64,000 nt of DNA from Leeia speluncae (GTDB lineage: Bacteria; Pseudomonadota; Gammaproteobacteria; Burkholderiales; Leeiaceae): positions 149,202 through 213,201 of the forward strand of contig NZ_JAJBZT010000007.1 in NCBI RefSeq assembly GCF_020564625.1. Direction: 5' to 3'. The stretch's first letter is position 1, and every line of letters starts with the position of its first letter. Of this stretch, positions 28,820-39,241 are shown in pieces. Under the pieces are notes generated by a model. The model ran no database searches. It was not told where the DNA came from and saw nothing but the letters and a program-made list of their open reading frames with translations. The position numbers were made by a program, and so were the translations under genes.

Positions 28820-29212
28820 ATGATAAAACACCTAGACCATCTAGTGCTTACCACTGCCAACTTATCGGCTTGCACCTATTTCTATACCGAAGTGCTTGGC
28901 ATGCAAAAAGAAGAATTTATTGGCGGAACGCCTCCCGTGAAACGACTAGCGTTCAAGTTTGGTTTTCAGAAAATCAATATCCATGAAAAAGGAAAGGAAT
29001 TTCTACCCAAAGCCACACTCCCCACACCAGGTGCGCTAGATCTATGCTTTATTGTGAGTCTGCCGTTAGCTGATGTGGTCGCACAGTTACAGACGCATCA
29101 CATTGCAATAGAAGAAGGCCCTGTTACCAGAACTGGCGCAGTGGGGAAAATTACTTCAGTGTATGTCAGAGACCCAGATGGGAATTTAATTGAGCTTTCC
29201 GAGTACGATTAA
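28820..29212 (+). CDS. VOC-family (glyoxalase/bleomycin resistance-like) protein
   Basis: A 130-aa protein with two beta-alpha-beta3 modules of the vicinal-oxygen-chelate fold. HLDHLVLTTANLSACTYFYTE opens the first module and VYVRDPDGNLIELSEY closes the second, with His and Glu at metal-ligand positions. It follows the LacI gene after 28 bases on the same strand. Its last 47 bases overlap the end of the convergent heme oxygenase gene. Substrate unknown. Confidence 0.82.
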   Translation: MIKHLDHLVLTTANLSACTYFYTEVLGMQKEEFIGGTPPVKRLAFKFGFQKINIHEKGKEFLPKATLPTPGALDLCFIVSLPLADVVAQLQTHHIAIEEGPVTRTGAVGKITSVYVRDPDGNLIELSEYD

Positions 29213-29777
29213 GCTTTGCACATTCATCAAAATGGGCAATAAAAAAAGAAAATGTCGCTTTTGCGGCTTCTGTGGCATCTTCCTGATTGAGATGAGGCAG
29301 GCGTGGCGTAAGATAATTCCAAAAACGTTGCCAGCGCGTATATCCCTCTGATTCTGAAAAAAAACGGCACGGCAGTGAAATGGTTGAATGGTGATGCAAA
29401 TGTTTTGCAATAACACTACCACCAAGATGCGAACCTTCTAATACATATAAGCCACCGACAATTGCTGACTCACTCTCAAAAGTGGGTAAGGGAATTGAAC
29501 ATGGTAATAACTGTGCTTTCAAGTCTTGCAAGTCTTTGGCTATTAAGGCTGCACGAGGTGAGAATTTTTCTAATGGCAGATAGTCGGATAATGCAATTTC
29601 GAGTGCTTCTGTTGGGCCAAATAGCGCTGTTAATGCGATCGTATAATTCACTTCACTAATAGGCGTGCTCAGCAGACCGCGCAACATTTCATGATGATCT
29701 AACGCTCGGTGAAAATCGGTTGTAGCCGATTTCAACTGCTTCGCCATGTCAGGGAATATACCGGCAGGCATTTTCAT
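29166..29777 (-). CDS. bphO: Heme oxygenase, biliverdin-producing
   Basis: A 203-aa bacteriophytochrome-associated heme oxygenase, which opens heme to biliverdin, iron and CO. The proximal His is probably that of TTDFHRALDHHEML near residue 23. The distal helix GLYVLEGSHLGGSVIAKHL is diagnostic. The ATG at 29777 overlaps the stop of the phytochrome gene (ATGA), so the two are translationally coupled: the enzyme makes the chromophore for the upstream product. An ATG at 29810 would also be in frame. Confidence 0.9.
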   Translation of the reverse strand: MKMPAGIFPDMAKQLKSATTDFHRALDHHEMLRGLLSTPISEVNYTIALTALFGPTEALEIALSDYLPLEKFSPRAALIAKDLQDLKAQLLPCSIPLPTFESESAIVGGLYVLEGSHLGGSVIAKHLHHHSTISLPCRFFSESEGYTRWQRFWNYLTPRLPHLNQEDATEAAKATFSFFIAHFDECAKLNRTRKAQLNSHLGL

Positions 29778-31237
29778 CGCTTTTTTTCTTGCAAAAGTGT
29801 TTCTCGGCATTTGAGTGCAAACAATCGGTTCTCATTCGTCCAAGGACGGCTATACCCTAATCGTTTTTCCACCCATTTTTCAAATGAGCGCCTTGGAGCA
29901 ATACCAAGTAACCCATCATGGTACTCGATCGGTTTTTCGGGAGTTCCTCCCCATTCGACCTCGTACACGTATTCTGCGCGGGTTAGGTATACCCTTGTTT
30001 GTGCTTGTGAGTCGCCTTGCGGTCGTCCAAACTTAATGGCTAGCACCCCGGCAATCTCAGATAAAGGCATACCATCTACTTGTTTATGTAAGTGATCACT
30101 AGACCAGATCAACTCGGATTGTTCAGTAACAAACCAATGATCCAAATAATCTAATGCTTCAGACGAAAAACACAAACCAACCCCAAGCGCCAGATTGTTT
30201 TGCACCAAAATGGCTCCATCGGCATTGAATTCTTCGATTAGCCAAGCACCAAGCTCAGGCCATGCAGTACCTAAATCTCCATGTCTTTGTAGGATTTGTT
30301 CAAAGGGTTTAAATCGTTGTGCGATGCTATCTATTAAGCGAAGACGGCGTTGAGATAGATAGCTGATTAAGGTGAGGGTATGGTTTTTTACTTCACTCTG
30401 AGCAAGCTGTAATTCGTGAACAGTTGGATAGGCGGCCATCTGATGGTGAGCTGCAATTAGGGCAAATAACTTTCCACTCACTACAATTGGGAATGATAAC
30501 GATGCCCGTACCCCCATATTTTGCAAATACACTCGATGCATTTCCGATACGCTGCGTAAATCGGTAAAACTCAGATCAACCGGCGTTTCTTCGCCTACAA
30601 TAGGAACGGCATCAGCCACTACGTCTGGAATCAAGCGCCAAGGGTTTTTGATGTACAAGGCCCTAGCAATATGCGGAATATCTGAATCGGGGAATCTCAA
30701 TCCCAAATAACTGCCATATGCATCGGTTAATCGGGCTTCCGCCACCACTTCACCATCACCATTATCATGGAAAAGGTAGTACATCACCCGCTGAAATCCG
30801 GTCAATTCGGCAACCCGATTGACTAGAATCTTCCTTGCTTCTAACAGGCTCTCTTCATCCTGAATCATCACAGGTAAGCCCATGTATAAACGATTCCGAA
30901 TATCTGTTGCTCTAGAAGACAGGAACTCTAAAATAATTTGACCATTTTCCCCACGGCTAATGATGACATCGACTTGCTGTCGCATACCGTTTTGCAAGTG
31001 CTCAACGATTAACCTTTTTCCGGGTTCTTTGGATAATTGCGAAGCCAACACCTGTAGTTCATCTGGTAATTGACTATGAAGGGTAGGAGGGTAAATGAAA
31101 AAGTCGGCTATATTCTTAGCATAATGGGTAATGCATCCCGCTTCATTGGCAACTATCAATGTGCCATGCGACAAAATATGGCCCGACAAATGTAATAACT
31201 CTTGCTCACAAGTCGATATCTGCTCAATATGGTTCAT
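29774..31237 (-). CDS. bphP: Bacteriophytochrome photosensory module without output domain
   Basis: A 487-aa PAS-GAF-PHY protein that should bind biliverdin and sense red/far-red light. Cys10 in ISTCEQELLHLSGHI is at the biliverdin-attachment position of bacteriophytochromes. The GAF domain has FPDSDIPHIARALY (DIP motif) and FALIAAHHQ. The PHY tongue carries PRRSFEKW (PRxSF). The protein ends at the close of PHY; there is no histidine kinase, although family members normally go on for 230 or more residues. Its ATG overlaps the stop of the CheB/CheR/GGDEF/EAL gene (ATGA) and its stop overlaps bphO. It therefore probably acts in trans on the large signalling protein. Confidence 0.9.
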   Translation of the reverse strand: MNHIEQISTCEQELLHLSGHILSHGTLIVANEAGCITHYAKNIADFFIYPPTLHSQLPDELQVLASQLSKEPGKRLIVEHLQNGMRQQVDVIISRGENGQIILEFLSSRATDIRNRLYMGLPVMIQDEESLLEARKILVNRVAELTGFQRVMYYLFHDNGDGEVVAEARLTDAYGSYLGLRFPDSDIPHIARALYIKNPWRLIPDVVADAVPIVGEETPVDLSFTDLRSVSEMHRVYLQNMGVRASLSFPIVVSGKLFALIAAHHQMAAYPTVHELQLAQSEVKNHTLTLISYLSQRRLRLIDSIAQRFKPFEQILQRHGDLGTAWPELGAWLIEEFNADGAILVQNNLALGVGLCFSSEALDYLDHWFVTEQSELIWSSDHLHKQVDGMPLSEIAGVLAIKFGRPQGDSQAQTRVYLTRAEYVYEVEWGGTPEKPIEYHDGLLGIAPRRSFEKWVEKRLGYSRPWTNENRLFALKCRETLLQEKKR

Positions 31238-34200
31238 GCGGTAGCCCCTTCTGCACGCAGTAGGGCCTCAAATGCAGACGATTCTAGAGGACGGCTGAGT
31301 AAATATCCTTGCACGGAATCACAGTCATGTTGCACAAGCCAGTTTAGCTGCTCATCAGATTCCACACCTTCTGCAATCGTATGTAAATCTAATGCTTTGG
31401 CTAATCCTAGTACCGCCTTAGCAATTGCCTCGTCTTCAGGGTCTTTACCCAACCCATCTACAAAACTCTTGTCTATTTTTAATTCATGCAAAGGTAAACG
31501 TTTTAGATAAGATAATGAGGAGTATCCAGTGCCAAAGTCATCGATCGCAATATTTACCCCCGCACAATTCAATTCGTCTAAGTTGGATGTGACTACTTGG
31601 CTATTTTCTAGCAATGCACCTTCGGTAATTTCTACTTGAATCAATTGAGTGGAAATGTTGGCATTCATGATTTTATCAATTAATTTACTAGCAAACATGG
31701 GCTCACGGATAGAGCGTGCGGATACGTTAAACGCAATTGGAGGAATCACAAAGCCTTGGGCTTGCCATGCTATCAATTGGTTAATTAAAAGCATCTCCAC
31801 TGTTTGCGTTAATTCGATCACTAATCCAGATGCCTCTGCAACAGGGATAAACTCTGCTGGTGGTACATTGCCTAGTTCAGGGTCTTGCCAGCGAAGCAAT
31901 GCCTCTGCACCAATTAATAAGGGTTGATGAGCGATTGCATATTTTGGTTGGAACACTAAGCGTAAGCGATTTTTACGCATGGCTTCTCTCAGTGCGCCCT
32001 CTAAAATAGCGCGTTTCATGAGCCTTACTTGTAAATCTGCACGATAAAACTCAACCCGATTTCGGCCCAACTCTTTTGCTCTATACATTGCCGCATCAGC
32101 AGAGCGCACCAAGCTAGTTGCATCTTGGTGATCATCGGGATAAAACGCAACGCCGATACTGGCTGATACAAATAAGGTACGTCCCTGAACAATAAATGAA
32201 GCGGATAGATCATTTAAAATACGGTTAGCCACTTCACTGACCGACGTAGGGGTGCAATCCGATAAAATAGCCGTAAATTCATCACCTCCCAGTCTTGCTA
32301 CGGTATCTACATCTCTTACGACTGCACGGAGTCGATTGGCCGCTTCTCGCAATAGTTCGTCACCAACATCATGTCCTAAGGTATCGTTAATCGTCTTAAA
32401 GTCATCTAAATCAATAAACAGCAATGCTAATTGTTGTTTGTTTCTACTTGCCGTCGCAAGGTCGTGTTTTAAGCGATCATTAAATAAAGCGCGATTAGGC
32501 AACCCGGTTAATGCATCATGGGTAGATAGGTACTCTGCTTTTTGCTGAGATGTCTTGATCTCCGCAATATCAGAGAAGATCGCAATAAAATGCTCCGTAT
32601 TGCCGTGATTATCATCTAGTAGGTTAATGGTTAGCCAGCAAGGGTATTCTTCACCTGATCGATGCTTATTCCAAATTTCCCCCTGCCAAAATCCTTTTTC
32701 CTTGAGCGAAGCCCAAAGTTGCTGATAAAAGACTTCAGAATGTTTCTCTGATTTTAGAAATTGTAGCGGCTGACCAATTGCCTCTGAGCCATAACCTGTG
32801 ATCCGTTGAAAGGCTGTATTCACCGTCTGGATAATCGCATTTGAATCTGTCACTACAATGGCTTCACCCGCCTGTTCAAACACTTGCGCATTAATTCTTA
32901 GTTGCTCTGCGGCTTGTTTAGATAGGGTGATATCCTCGGCTTCGATAATAAAAGCACTAGGTTCGCCATTGATATCATGGAGAATTTGGTGGACAGTTTT
33001 TAAATATCTCGGCCCATCTTTACCAGGAATCATATGTTCACCAGAACACGATTCACCGGTACGCAACGCTCTAAGGTCTAACTCCCATAAAGAGGTAGCT
33101 ATGTCTGCAGACATCAAAGAAAAATTGGATTTTCCTTGATATTCATCGGCTGATAATCCAAAAAACATTAAAAAACGGCTATTTGCATATTGATAATGTC
33201 CATGCAAATCCTTCATCGCAAAGATCACCGTTGTTTTTTCCATCAACGCAAGTAGGCGATTTTGTGAAGCCATTAGCTGAGATTGTGTTTTTGCAACGTC
33301 AGTAATATCGATTAGGCACGTTACTAGGGTGCGAATATGACCATCAGAGTCAAAACCAGGGGTAATCACTAGACGTTGAACTTGCTCTAGGTCTGAGATA
33401 ATTTCTTCGATAATTTCCCCATGCTCAATGACCTGATAAAGCTTTGCTGGCAGCTCGGCAAGTTTGCTAGGCAGGCGCAGACTGTGCACGTTTTGGTTTA
33501 GTGCGGTTGTACGTAAGTCACATGCTTTTGCCGCACTCTTATTAAAACGAATGAGCTCCGCGTGCTGATCAAATACCATAATGGGAAAATGCAAAGCATC
33601 ATATAAATGCACATATTCTTCGGTTAGTATGCCAAGCTCGTAAGTTTTGACATTTAACTCTTCATTTAGGCTAATTAACTCTTCGTTTGTGGCTTGTAAT
33701 TCTTGGTTAGCCGCTTCAAGTTCTTCGTTGGTGGCTTGTAATTCTTCATTCGCTGCTTGTGCTTCTTCATTGAGTGTTTGCATCTCTTCATTGGAGGTCG
33801 CCATTTCCTCCACAAGGGTTTGCAAATGCTCTCTGGTAACGAGCAGTTCGTCTTCCATTTCTAGGGTTTGTGAGACAGGGCGCATTTCATCCGGTAGCAC
33901 AGCTTCTACCGGAATAATCAATACCAAGGTGTATTGCGTACCGGCATCATGAAGTGGGGAGACCAACAAATACACCCATTCAGATTCGAGTTTGCGCTGG
34001 CGGCCGTGCTGCGCCTGGTTTTCTTGCCTAGCACGGTGCATCATCGATAAAAGTTCTCCTCGAAGAGCAGGTAAGATGACTTCAGAGGCAATACATCTTG
34101 TTGCACCTTCTGGAAACTTCAGAAATTTGTCTACTTGACCTGCTGCATGTTGAATTGCACCATCTCGATCACACAACACGCACGTGACGCCTAGCTGTTG

Positions 34201-35694
34201 CACTATCCCTGTAAGCAGCATCTCCATCCGACGATCTTTTCGCACCATGGGAATCTCAACTTTTGATTCACTTGGGTTGAAAATCAACTCTGTCGGATTA
34301 TCTCCCGTTTTTTTATACAAACGCTCCCGACGGTTAATAGGAGAAAAACAATTATCGGATTGACCGATACTTTCAGATCGACCTAAAAATAATAATCCTT
34401 CTTTTTTTAGACCAAACTGAAACGTTTTTAGTACTTTTGCTTGTAACACTGCATCAAAATAAATAAGTACATTACGGCAAGAAACTAAATCTAAGCGAAA
34501 AAAGGGCGGGTCTGTAACGAGATTGTGCTTTGCAAACACAATCATGTCTCGCAGAGATTTTTTTGCCTCATAATTACTGCCTACTGCGTTGAAATACTTT
34601 TCTCGCATTTCCATCGGGACAATATTCATTGCAATCTGAGGGTAAATCCCTCTTCGCGCAATATTGAGTGCATCATCATCCACATCGGTCGCAAAGATTT
34701 GTACTGGAGGTGCAATTCCCAGCTGATATAGCGATTCTGCAATTAACATGGCAATCGAATAGACTTCCTCGCCACTGGCACAACCGGCTACCCACACTCT
34801 AATGTCGCCACCATCTTTACGTGACTGGCAAAGAAGGTTGATCGCGTCACGCAAAGCGTCAAATGCATCATGATCACGGAAAAATGCGGTAACAGAAATC
34901 AAAATATCTTTGGCAAGTAAATCTAGTTCCTCAGGATGTTGGTCTACCCAGTTTAGGTAAGTGTTGAGATCAAAATTGCCTGTGGCAATTTCACGTCGGC
35001 GAATGCGACGCATCAATGTACCAATTTTATATCCCGTGAAATCATAGTGAATTTGTGATTTTAATTTGCTGAGCAATTGCCCTAGCAAATCTTGTTCTGG
35101 CGGTAATGTATCTGCAGTCTCTAGAGATAAAATCATTTGCAGCGCGGCGGGCAAATCTTCTGGAGAGGCGATATGATCAGCAACCCCTGCATCTATTGCA
35201 GACTGAGGCATCCCTTCGTATTTTGCGGTTTCGGGTAATTGCACCAACGTATGACCGCCTGCAGTTTGAATCGCACGTAAGCCCGCAACGCCATCTGACC
35301 CGGTGCCGGATAACAAAATGCCCGTAGCAGCAGTGGCTTCCTCTTCGGCTAAAGAGCAGAAGAACTGGTTTATTGAAGGTTTGGGTGAAGATTCTGGTGG
35401 TGCTAACGAAAGACGAATTACCCCTTTTTCTAAGATAGCGTTATAACTAGCTGGAATCACACAAAGCATCCCGGCTTTTAACTGCAACCCGTCAGTCGCT
35501 TCAATAACGCTTAATACGGTTTCTCTGGATAGAATATCCACCATCATGCTTTTATAAGTGGGGGATAAATGCTGAAGAAGGACATAAGCACAAGGTAGTG
35601 TTGGGGATAGATTCGCAATCAACTTCGTCACTGCTTCTAAACCACCGGCGGAAGCGCCAATACCTACGATGTAGGTTTTACCTTCAATGCTCAT
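31234..35694 (-). CDS. CheB-CheR-coiled coil-PAS-GGDEF-EAL signalling protein
   Basis: A 1486-aa multidomain cytoplasmic protein. Residues about 3-185 are a CheB methylesterase domain with the triad Ser in GIGASAGG, His in LLQHLSP and Asp in GTGSDGVAG. About 205-470 is a CheR methyltransferase with the SAM motif WVAGCASGEEVYSIAM. A coiled coil (about 610-685) is built of repeated NEEL/NEELQAT heptads. PAS domains follow (about 710-1070). GGDEF is intact (ARLGGDEFTAIL, near 1135) and EAL is intact (GAEALLRW near 1264, DDFGTGYSS, KIDKSF, EGVE, QGYLLS). It heads the bph operon. Start at 35694 is preceded by GGGA; an ATG ten codons upstream has no ribosome site. CheB/CheR fusions of this kind are of unknown target, and both c-di-GMP activities may be present. 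Confidence 0.9.
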   Translation of the reverse strand: MSIEGKTYIVGIGASAGGLEAVTKLIANLSPTLPCAYVLLQHLSPTYKSMMVDILSRETVLSVIEATDGLQLKAGMLCVIPASYNAILEKGVIRLSLAPPESSPKPSINQFFCSLAEEEATAATGILLSGTGSDGVAGLRAIQTAGGHTLVQLPETAKYEGMPQSAIDAGVADHIASPEDLPAALQMILSLETADTLPPEQDLLGQLLSKLKSQIHYDFTGYKIGTLMRRIRRREIATGNFDLNTYLNWVDQHPEELDLLAKDILISVTAFFRDHDAFDALRDAINLLCQSRKDGGDIRVWVAGCASGEEVYSIAMLIAESLYQLGIAPPVQIFATDVDDDALNIARRGIYPQIAMNIVPMEMREKYFNAVGSNYEAKKSLRDMIVFAKHNLVTDPPFFRLDLVSCRNVLIYFDAVLQAKVLKTFQFGLKKEGLLFLGRSESIGQSDNCFSPINRRERLYKKTGDNPTELIFNPSESKVEIPMVRKDRRMEMLLTGIVQQLGVTCVLCDRDGAIQHAAGQVDKFLKFPEGATRCIASEVILPALRGELLSMMHRARQENQAQHGRQRKLESEWVYLLVSPLHDAGTQYTLVLIIPVEAVLPDEMRPVSQTLEMEDELLVTREHLQTLVEEMATSNEEMQTLNEEAQAANEELQATNEELEAANQELQATNEELISLNEELNVKTYELGILTEEYVHLYDALHFPIMVFDQHAELIRFNKSAAKACDLRTTALNQNVHSLRLPSKLAELPAKLYQVIEHGEIIEEIISDLEQVQRLVITPGFDSDGHIRTLVTCLIDITDVAKTQSQLMASQNRLLALMEKTTVIFAMKDLHGHYQYANSRFLMFFGLSADEYQGKSNFSLMSADIATSLWELDLRALRTGESCSGEHMIPGKDGPRYLKTVHQILHDINGEPSAFIIEAEDITLSKQAAEQLRINAQVFEQAGEAIVVTDSNAIIQTVNTAFQRITGYGSEAIGQPLQFLKSEKHSEVFYQQLWASLKEKGFWQGEIWNKHRSGEEYPCWLTINLLDDNHGNTEHFIAIFSDIAEIKTSQQKAEYLSTHDALTGLPNRALFNDRLKHDLATASRNKQQLALLFIDLDDFKTINDTLGHDVGDELLREAANRLRAVVRDVDTVARLGGDEFTAILSDCTPTSVSEVANRILNDLSASFIVQGRTLFVSASIGVAFYPDDHQDATSLVRSADAAMYRAKELGRNRVEFYRADLQVRLMKRAILEGALREAMRKNRLRLVFQPKYAIAHQPLLIGAEALLRWQDPELGNVPPAEFIPVAEASGLVIELTQTVEMLLINQLIAWQAQGFVIPPIAFNVSARSIREPMFASKLIDKIMNANISTQLIQVEITEGALLENSQVVTSNLDELNCAGVNIAIDDFGTGYSSLSYLKRLPLHELKIDKSFVDGLGKDPEDEAIAKAVLGLAKALDLHTIAEGVESDEQLNWLVQHDCDSVQGYLLSRPLESSAFEALLRAEGATA

Positions 35695-37921: not shown

Positions 37922-39241
37922 ATGTTTAATCGCAAAGAAAAAGAACAAATCGCTGAATTAACACAACAGTTACAGCGCCAACAAGCCATTCTCACTGCGC
38001 TAGACCGGGCAACGGCATTTGTAGAGTTTGATTTATCTGGCAAGGTGGTTCAAGCGAACTCACTTTTTGCCGCCACCATGGGTTTTGGCAACCCTTCGCA
38101 AGTCATTGGTAAATCTCACAGCGAGTTTTGCGAGCCTAGCTACACCCAATCGTCCGAATACCAGCAGTTTTGGACCAACCTAAGAAATGGTTCGCCGTTT
38201 CAGGGGGTAGTAAAGCGTCTAAAATCCAGCCATGAACCAGTGTGGTTAGAAGCTACCTACACACCCATCATCAATGCGCAAAACCAAGTCACTGGCGTGA
38301 TTAAAATTGCGAGTGATGTCACCGAGGCGATCCTATCTTCCGGCAGAAATAAAGCCATTCTTGCGTCTATTAACCGCGCAATGGCCGTTATCGAATTTAC
38401 AGTAGATGGCATTGTGAAAGAGTGTAATGATAATTTCCTTAGCACCATGGGCTATAGCAAATCCGAGCTGATTGGTAAGCACCATCAAATTTTCTGTTCC
38501 TCAGCCATTGTCTCTAGCCCTGAATATCAGCAATTTTGGTCATCGTTATCCCGTGGCCAACTAATGACAGGGAAATTCGAGCGTGTCAGTAAATCTGGTA
38601 AGCAAATCTGGTTAGAAGCTAGCTACAACCCGGTATTTGATGATCAAGGCCATGTGGTTAGTGTGATTAAATTCGCCACCGATATTACCGCCCAGATAGA
38701 GCAAAATCAGCTAGAGAGAGACAGTGCATTATTTGCCTTTACCACCTCTCAGCAAACCCAATCTTGGGCGGAAACGGGAGTCCAGAACGTAGACAATAGT
38801 GTGAAAGCCATCCGCTCTATGTCTGCTAATATTGATGCCGCCTCATCTAATATTCACGAGCTTGGCCAAAAATCGCAAGAGATTACCTCTATCGTCAACA
38901 CCATTAAAGAAATTGCCGATCAGACCAATTTGCTCGCGCTAAATGCTGCGATTGAAGCCGCTAGGGCAGGGGAAACCGGTCGTGGTTTTGCGGTGGTGGC
39001 AGATGAAGTCAGAAAACTATCCGAAAGAACCGGCCAATCTACCGCAGAAATTTCTAAAACCATTTCCGACATTCAATCTAAAACATCTATTGCCGTTCAA
39101 AGCATGGGGCTAATTCAATCTGAAGTTGGGAGTAGTGTAGACATCACCATGGCTACCGGCGAAACCATCCGCCAGATTAGCGAAGGGGCCAATGCAGTAG
39201 TGTCTGCTATCGGAAAACTACCTTATGTACATAAAGGGTAA
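37922..39241 (+). CDS. Soluble methyl-accepting chemotaxis protein with two PAS domains (BdlA/Aer-like)
   Basis: A 439-aa cytoplasmic chemoreceptor without transmembrane helices. Two tandem PAS domains (about 20-140 and 145-260) are close copies: [20 protein letters not shown] versus [21 protein letters not shown]. The MCP signalling hairpin holds the invariant [20 protein letters not shown] and [12 protein letters not shown]. This is the BdlA layout, proteins that affect biofilm dispersal with c-di-GMP, or an energy taxis sensor. It is a single gene followed by a strong hairpin. Confidence 0.88.

What the first reader, a model, noticed from the sequence alone, without database searches (positions are those of the whole stretch)
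29166..35694. Phytochrome sensor without output domain, coupled to a CheB-CheR-PAS-GGDEF-EAL giant and heme oxygenase
Seen: three minus-strand genes joined by two ATGA overlaps. The first encodes CheB, CheR, coiled coil, PAS, GGDEF and EAL with intact signatures. The second is a bacteriophytochrome (Cys10, DIP motif, PRxSF tongue) that ends after PHY. The third is heme oxygenase. Known: phytochromes normally carry a kinase or cyclase on the same chain. Inference: here the photosensor acts in trans on a separate protein that could change both methylation and c-di-GMP. I do not know a described system of this form.
Basis: partly seen in the sequence, partly recalled or inferred. Interest (0 to 1): 0.75.

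Follow-up and report, generated by a model that had tools for sequence, protein, structure and literature searches.

The report
Two-protein red-light switch for c-di-GMP
Many proteobacteria carry, side by side, a phytochrome light sensor that ends where its signalling part normally begins and a giant protein with the active-site residues of four enzymes intact, so light is predicted to control the messenger c-di-GMP through contact between two separate proteins.

Summary
In detail: three minus-strand genes with two ATGA overlaps encode a CheB-CheR-coil-PAS-GGDEF-EAL giant (1486 aa), a 487-aa PAS-GAF-PHY phytochrome without output domain, and heme oxygenase. It is a conserved system. Among the best 80 of 271 loci found by the phytochrome alone, 77 can be judged: 61 have a fused giant directly upstream, 12 a cut, split, disrupted, kinase-bearing or downstream form, 4 none. 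75 short phytochromes form one clade apart from 16 ordinary ones. Residues of all four active sites are kept in 58-60 of 60 giants. Phytochrome and giant distances correlate (r 0.88, 56 pairs), better than either with heme oxygenase. Regulation in trans is inferred; contact was not tested. A bolder reading: the helix behind CheR repeats EExxA[ST] every seven residues, like chemoreceptor methylation helices (consensus recalled). Of 1603 ORFs, 63 of 72 with CheB or CheR have three or more such units, against 2 of the other 1531, both chemoreceptor-like. The giant may methylate itself, giving adaptation inside one chain. My literature searches found neither idea described.

The parts
31234..35694 (-). 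giant CheB-CheR-PAS-like-coil-PAS1-PAS2-PAS3-GGDEF-EAL protein, 1486 aa (ORF open to 35724, 1496 aa; residue numbers in this report follow the 1496-aa form)
35140..35667 (-). CheB methylesterase domain (residues 20-195), no receiver domain; Ser25, His52, Asp144
   Evidence: Pfam; residue conservation; structure match to CheB
34330..35079 (-). CheR methyltransferase, N-terminal plus SAM-binding domain (residues 216-465)
   Evidence: Pfam
33907..34248 (-). PAS-like fold between CheR and the coil (residues about 493-606), fast-evolving
   Evidence: predicted model (my reading of its secondary structure)
33595..33858 (-). single uninterrupted 88-residue helix (residues 623-710), the NEEL coiled coil
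   Evidence: predicted model; conservation
33688..33768 (-). four 7-spaced [EQ][EQ]xx[AST][AST] units (residues 653-679), proposed methylation sites
   Evidence: function inferred
33259..33609 (-). PAS1 (residues 706-822), the most family-specific domain, proposed docking site of the phytochrome
   Evidence: docking inferred
32539..33258 (-). PAS2 and PAS3 (residues 823-1062)
   Evidence: Pfam
32056..32523 (-). GGDEF domain (residues 1068-1223) with GGDEF motif and RxxD I-site
31288..31995 (-). EAL domain (residues 1244-1479), catalytic residues kept
31234..31237 (-). ATGA overlap of giant stop and phytochrome start
29774..31237 (-). phytochrome PAS-GAF-PHY, 487 aa, no output domain
29780..29836 (-). 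short C-terminal PHY helix (residues 468-486), where an output domain would follow
   Evidence: predicted model; conservation
29774..29777 (-). ATGA overlap of phytochrome stop and heme oxygenase start
29166..29777 (-). heme oxygenase (203 aa from the ATGA start; ORF open to 29810)

Best explanation
The three overlapping genes encode a phytochrome without an output domain, a CheB-CheR-coil-PAS-GGDEF-EAL giant and a heme oxygenase, and the phytochrome is predicted to switch the giant in trans by docking on it, which would change c-di-GMP. Heme oxygenase would make biliverdin, which would attach to Cys10 of the phytochrome (inferred from the families). Red or far-red light would refold the PHY tongue and shift the short C-terminal helix, as established for other phytochromes. 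This helix and tongue would contact the giant, most likely at PAS1 directly behind the 88-residue coil (inferred), and the strain would run along coil and PAS tandem to the GGDEF-EAL pair. CheB and CheR, both with intact active-site residues, would adjust the sensitivity of the switch by reversible methylation, in my preferred version on the giant's own coil (inferred).
For: Adjacency: 61 of 77 judgeable loci have a fused giant directly upstream, stop-to-start distance -20 to +124 nt, overlapping in 35 of 61 (my start rule). Two same-genus genomes have no phytochrome match and no giant at E 1e-140. Clades: 75 short phytochromes apart from 16 ordinary ones, support 0.998; 61 linked CheB-CheR halves apart from 5 unlinked, support 0.92, with L035 and L036 outside. 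Distances: r 0.884 for 56 pairs, 0 of 999 permutations; BphO against either 0.44-0.46 in 41. Four active sites kept in 58-60 of 60. PAS1 is the most family-specific domain (best unlinked score / linked score 0.44, against 0.76-0.91 for CheB, CheR, coil, PAS3, GGDEF, EAL; PAS2 0.60, pre-coil fold 0.57), and the kinase-bearing linked giant L084 has a linked-type PAS1 (median 87 bits, unlinked at most 39). Tongue and C-terminal helix are more conserved in short than in ordinary phytochromes (0.61 v 0.41; 0.37 v 0.19).
Against: No contact was shown or modelled. 4 of 77 judgeable loci (L038, L042, L047, L085) have a short phytochrome without a giant, though L042 and L047 have another GGDEF gene in the locus. 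In the class sample G422 has a divergent 454-aa frame with a PHY match (60 bits), a GGDEF ORF next to it and no giant. Distance correlation does not single out PAS1 (0.73, against 0.85 for EAL and 0.83 for GGDEF), so docking at PAS1 rests on specificity only, part of which is common ancestry of the linked clade; L084's PAS2 is no closer to linked than to unlinked giants (median 66 v best 77 bits). Short phytochromes are more conserved throughout, not only at the C terminus (0.32 v 0.26 in PAS, 0.47 v 0.39 in GAF). Genes of one operon that move together correlate without touching. BphO is short and its copy was the best hit in the locus, which lowers its correlation.
Confidence: 0.7

Rival explanations
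1. CheB and CheR of the giant act on ordinary chemoreceptors in trans, so light tunes chemotaxis adaptation, and c-di-GMP is a second, parallel output.
For: A PAS-PAS-MCP protein is encoded at 37922-39241 with two genes between it and the giant. CheR and c-di-GMP are known to meet: a structure of CheR1 with c-di-GMP-bound MapZ is in the PDB (title).
Against: MCP genes were found within the fetched flanks of only 10 of 80 loci (blastp with the window's MCP, E 1e-5). The giant's own helix matches the methylation consensus.
Confidence: 0.3
2. It is merely a split version of the known one-chain phytochrome-GGDEF-EAL proteins: the same chain cut in two, with no new principle.
For: Phytochromes fused to GGDEF are common: 7 of the 11 output-bearing ones in the class sample have a GGDEF match in the same ORF; see also PMC9587094 (passages).
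Against: The short phytochromes form their own clade and the giants belong to the CheB-CheR fusion family, which also has unlinked members with the same coil. In L084 the partner carries a kinase and receiver in place of GGDEF-EAL.
Confidence: 0.12
3. The phytochrome signals to another partner or serves as a bilin or redox sensor, and the giant is only co-transcribed.
For: 4 of 77 loci have the short phytochrome without the giant, beside other genes such as a receiver protein (L047); G422 in the class sample likewise.
Against: Gene order and distance correlation in loci from Alpha-, Beta- and Gammaproteobacteria.
Confidence: 0.15

Closest known systems
PapB-PapA (BLUF photosensor and EAL phosphodiesterase; species, Rhodopseudomonas palustris, recalled)
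   Same: A stand-alone photosensor acts on a separate c-di-GMP enzyme (passage in PMC8846402).
   Different: BLUF sensor and EAL partner; no CheB-CheR part (recalled).
pyp operons with GGDEF/EAL genes
   Same: Stand-alone photosensor gene beside a c-di-GMP gene; GGDEF/EAL proteins in 29 of 113 predicted pyp operons (PMC12826048 passages).
   Different: Photoactive yellow protein; that survey found no pyp operon with a phytochrome, and the words CheB and CheR do not occur in its text.
PadC, PadC-EAL and BphG-type phytochrome-linked cyclases
   Same: Phytochrome control of c-di-GMP through a coiled coil.
   Different: Sensor and enzyme in one chain, without methylation enzymes (partly recalled; PMC9587094 passages; the same paper mentions an output-less sensory module in R. 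palustris).
CheB/CheR fusion proteins (CheBR hybrids)
   Same: Same CheB-CheR-coil core; JGI names relatives so; a hybrid is mentioned in Rhodospirillum centenum and cheBR fusions in Geobacter.
   Different: The linked clade carries the family-specific PAS1 and sits beside a short phytochrome; the 5 unlinked ones compared do not.
Methyl-accepting chemotaxis receptors
   Same: 7-spaced EExxA[ST] on a long helix, changed by CheR and CheB (consensus recalled).
   Different: No MCP signalling domain in the giant; enzymes and proposed substrate are one chain.

Membership tests
phytochrome photosensory module | PAS-GAF-PHY with bilin-binding Cys, DIP, conserved His and PRxSF tongue | tested here: met
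phytochrome photosensory module | bilin binding and photoconversion | not testable with these tools
   needs protein
BphP kinase (NCBIfam NF041576 equivalog) | whole-protein score over the curated cut-off of 1040 bits | tested here: not met
   150 bits; ends after PHY
phytochrome-linked diguanylate cyclase (PadC, BphG) | GGDEF on the same chain | tested here: not met
CheB-CheR fusion protein | CheB and CheR in one chain with intact catalytic residues | tested here: met
bifunctional GGDEF-EAL protein | intact GGDEF, I-site and EAL residues | tested here: met
PapB-PapA-like two-protein photoswitch | photosensor gene beside a c-di-GMP enzyme gene, conserved | tested here: met
PapB-PapA-like two-protein photoswitch | physical interaction that alters enzyme activity | not testable with these tools
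   no complex prediction on hand
chemoreceptor (MCP) | MCP signalling domain PF00015 | tested here: not met
   P0001
CheR/CheB methylation substrate | heptad-spaced EExxA[ST] helix (consensus recalled) | tested here: met
CheR/CheB methylation substrate | actual methyl esters | not testable with these tools
   needs SAM labelling or mass spectrometry

The most novel reading that the evidence does not exclude
The giant is a complete adapting sensory circuit in one chain: CheR and CheB write and erase methyl groups on its own chemoreceptor-like helix, which sets how strongly a separate, output-less phytochrome drives the attached GGDEF-EAL pair. By extension every CheB-CheR fusion would be a self-methylating receptor, which would answer what this large, little-studied family does.
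Probability: 0.35. Interest if true: 0.92.

Novelty: new variant of a known kind. Interest (0 to 1): 0.77.

Why it matters
It gives output-less phytochromes a conserved candidate partner in Proteobacteria, a natural two-protein (sensor plus enzyme) red-light control of c-di-GMP that could be used in optogenetics, and a directly testable proposal for the substrate of CheB-CheR fusions: their own coil. Memory by methylation inside a c-di-GMP enzyme would be a new form of adaptation.

Tried and rejected
Truncation, pseudogene or frameshift as the cause of the missing output domain: rejected, relatives end at the same place. A coincidental operon: rejected. Splitting as a clue to the docking domain: L025 looked like a separate CheB-CheR gene, but its CheB-CheR frame runs out in the pre-coil fold and overlaps, in another frame, a phytochrome that lacks its first 40 or so residues, so I set it aside as a disrupted or misassembled locus; L078 and L061 are also disrupted. 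L035 and L036 have a split pair whose CheB-CheR is outside the linked clade. A solved structure for the coil: only designed or generic coiled coils, E 0.019 at best. The structure comparison of the giant model returned mainly CheB, CheR and other methyltransferases; the PAS parts were hardly tested. The Pfam scan of 9 proteins beside the exceptions and in L084 showed no partner common to the exceptions. Promoter scan: 5 found, 14.7 expected, nothing usable. Literature: (open-access papers only; some returned nothing; 46 was a poor query, swamped by surnames); none of the listings or passages seen describes this operon or a self-methylating CheB-CheR fusion. Dropped or set aside before counts: L012, L015, L044 (contig starts within 421 nt upstream of the phytochrome); G149 (147-aa piece under cut-off) from the class comparison; L028 from the domain comparison, L028 and L020 from the distance test; 6 of 80 phytochromes outside 470-530 aa from conservation and tree. 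The domain comparison used 25 of 60 linked giants and 5 unlinked ones, of which one (L108) has no GGDEF or EAL match. The 80 loci are the best of 271, found through two motifs of the short family; the other 191 were not seen.
Full report
What is there. Three genes on the minus strand overlap by ATGA. The first encodes a giant of 1486 aa (ORF 1496 aa): CheB 20-195, CheR 216-465, a PAS-like fold, an 88-residue helix, three PAS regions, GGDEF 1068-1223 and EAL 1244-1479 (Pfam; predicted model of residues 16-830, mean pLDDT 83.9 but pTM only 0.46). CheB has no receiver domain. The second is a phytochrome of 487 aa; its model (mean pLDDT 86.6, residues 426-458 in the tongue region under 50) matches PAS-GAF-PHY modules of Pseudomonas, Deinococcus and Agrobacterium phytochromes and ends with a 19-residue helix. 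The third is a heme oxygenase. The host is probably a betaproteobacterium near Leeia: MoaA from the next gene is 78% identical to that of Leeia oryzae. The host genome has one PHY match and one further, unlinked CheB-CheR-coil-PAS-GGDEF-EAL protein of 1791 aa.

Conservation. The phytochrome alone, as an alignment of 38 proteins, was used to search one genome per species; 271 relatives were found and the best 80 kept. No selection was made on the neighbour, but the two motifs used favour the short family. 3 of 80 cannot be judged (L012, L015, L044: contig start). Of 77, 61 have a fused giant directly upstream (58 with CheB and CheR seen, 3 without a CheB match: L013, L026, L054); 3 show its C-terminal part up to the contig end (L041, L060, L076); 9 have a split, disrupted, incomplete, kinase-bearing or downstream form (L025, L035, L036, L056, L061, L078, L081, L084, L088); 4 have none (L038, L042, L047, L085), two of which have another GGDEF gene in the locus. 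Organisms include Azonexus, Parazoarcus, Hydrogenophilus, Nitrosomonas, Methylomonas, Halomonas/Vreelandella, Shewanella, Idiomarina, Nitrincola, Paramagnetospirillum and Skermanella (labels as deposited, some MAG labels look wrong).

Specificity. In 369 genomes of the class, 16 (own included) have a PHY match. Four output-less phytochromes (own, G307, G138, G204) lie beside CheB-CheR; 11 output-bearing ones in 10 genomes have no giant beside them, though one (G260) has a piece of an EAL gene next to it. Against the rule, G422 has a divergent 454-aa frame with a PHY match, a GGDEF ORF next to it and no giant; its second, weaker match lies in a GGDEF ORF. G307 and G204 have the contig lengths of L087 and L025 and are not independent. 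In one search the matches shown were limited to E 1e-140 and 28 candidates a genome were scored. Of 60 relatives searched with the phytochrome (own included) 5 matched; the 4 others have frames of 749-967 aa. Two same-genus genomes have neither gene by these searches: the pair was gained or lost together.

A pair that evolves together. 75 short phytochromes (74 loci and the window) split cleanly from 16 ordinary ones (0.998), and 61 linked giants, including the kinase-bearing L084, from 5 unlinked ones (0.92). Pairwise distances correlate at 0.884 over 56 pairs (0 of 999 permutations reach it); heme oxygenase correlates at 0.455 with the phytochrome and 0.441 with the giant, where phytochrome and giant give 0.876 in the same 41. 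All genes of an operon share history, so this is support and not proof of contact.

Active sites. In 60 giants: CheB Ser 59, His 59, Asp 58; CheR Arg, Gly, two Glu, Asp, Asn 60, Tyr 59; GGDEF motif and two further GGDEF-domain residues 60; I-site Arg 59, Asp 60; ten EAL positions 60 (which residues are catalytic is recalled). This points to selection on four activities together.

Where the phytochrome could dock. Comparing each domain with 5 unlinked giants (25 linked ones used), the enzymes, coil and PAS3 are shared (ratio 0.76-0.91) but PAS1 is not (0.44), then the pre-coil fold (0.57) and PAS2 (0.60). L084, with kinase and receiver instead of GGDEF-EAL, still has a linked-type PAS1, while its coil and PAS2 do not tell linked from unlinked. 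On the sensor side tongue and last helix are relatively more conserved than in ordinary phytochromes. Against this, the distance test does not favour PAS1.

The coil. Behind CheR most giants carry NEEAQASNEELQATNEELEAANEELQATNEEL or close to it; length changes are by 7 (L033) or 14 residues (L072, L074, L075, L083), and L028 lacks the repeat. Each heptad has the form EExxA[ST], which is the methylation-site consensus of chemoreceptors as I recall it (two source papers were looked up and are not held). Three or more 7-spaced [EQ][EQ]xx[AST][AST] units occur in 55 of 60 linked giants and 5 of 5 unlinked ones. Among the 1603 ORFs of at least 150 aa in the 80 loci, 63 of 72 with a CheB or CheR match have them, and 2 of the other 1531. 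These two are PAS proteins cut by the locus end; L043 has the start of an MCP domain in Pfam, L057 only PAS, and I call it a chemoreceptor by its likeness to L043. I moved both into the chemoreceptor class after they had matched; of the 14 chemoreceptors found by blastp beforehand none has three units and one has two. 0 of 2000 composition shuffles of the coil reach three. The expression was written after I had seen the coil, it finds few known chemoreceptors, and the 72 proteins are related, so the test shows specificity and not independent origin. A plain dimeric coiled coil is the sober alternative.

Mechanism and limits. Light to phytochrome to giant to c-di-GMP is the best-supported chain; the contact, the sign of the effect and the methylation target are inferred. 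Known relatives are given under Closest known systems. My ten literature searches and passages of eight papers showed neither this operon nor self-methylation of CheB-CheR fusions; most subscription papers are not covered.

Noticed in passing
L084:11474-14269: Phytochrome histidine kinase of 931 aa with a C-terminal partial heme-oxygenase match (PF01126, 33.6 bits, best stretch 755-813), directly behind the short phytochrome: sensor and chromophore-maker possibly in one chain.
   Followed up: no
L084:5216-9943: CheB-CheR-coil-PAS-GAF-HisKA-HATPase-receiver protein in the place of the giant: same front, other output.
   Followed up: partly
L107:6251-11626 (G000 contig C2): Unlinked 1791-aa CheB-CheR-coil-PAS-GGDEF-EAL paralogue in the host genome, no phytochrome match in the stretch read.
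   Followed up: partly
window 37922-39241: PAS-PAS-MCP chemoreceptor gene near the operon, a possible alternative CheR/CheB target.
   Followed up: partly
L042:9198-9989: 263-aa protein with a weak HAMP-like match (under Pfam's cut-off) overlapping the start of a short phytochrome that has no giant.
   Followed up: partly
host genome G000: 64 places match the giant's domains, most of them GGDEF or EAL: a large c-di-GMP repertoire.
   Followed up: no
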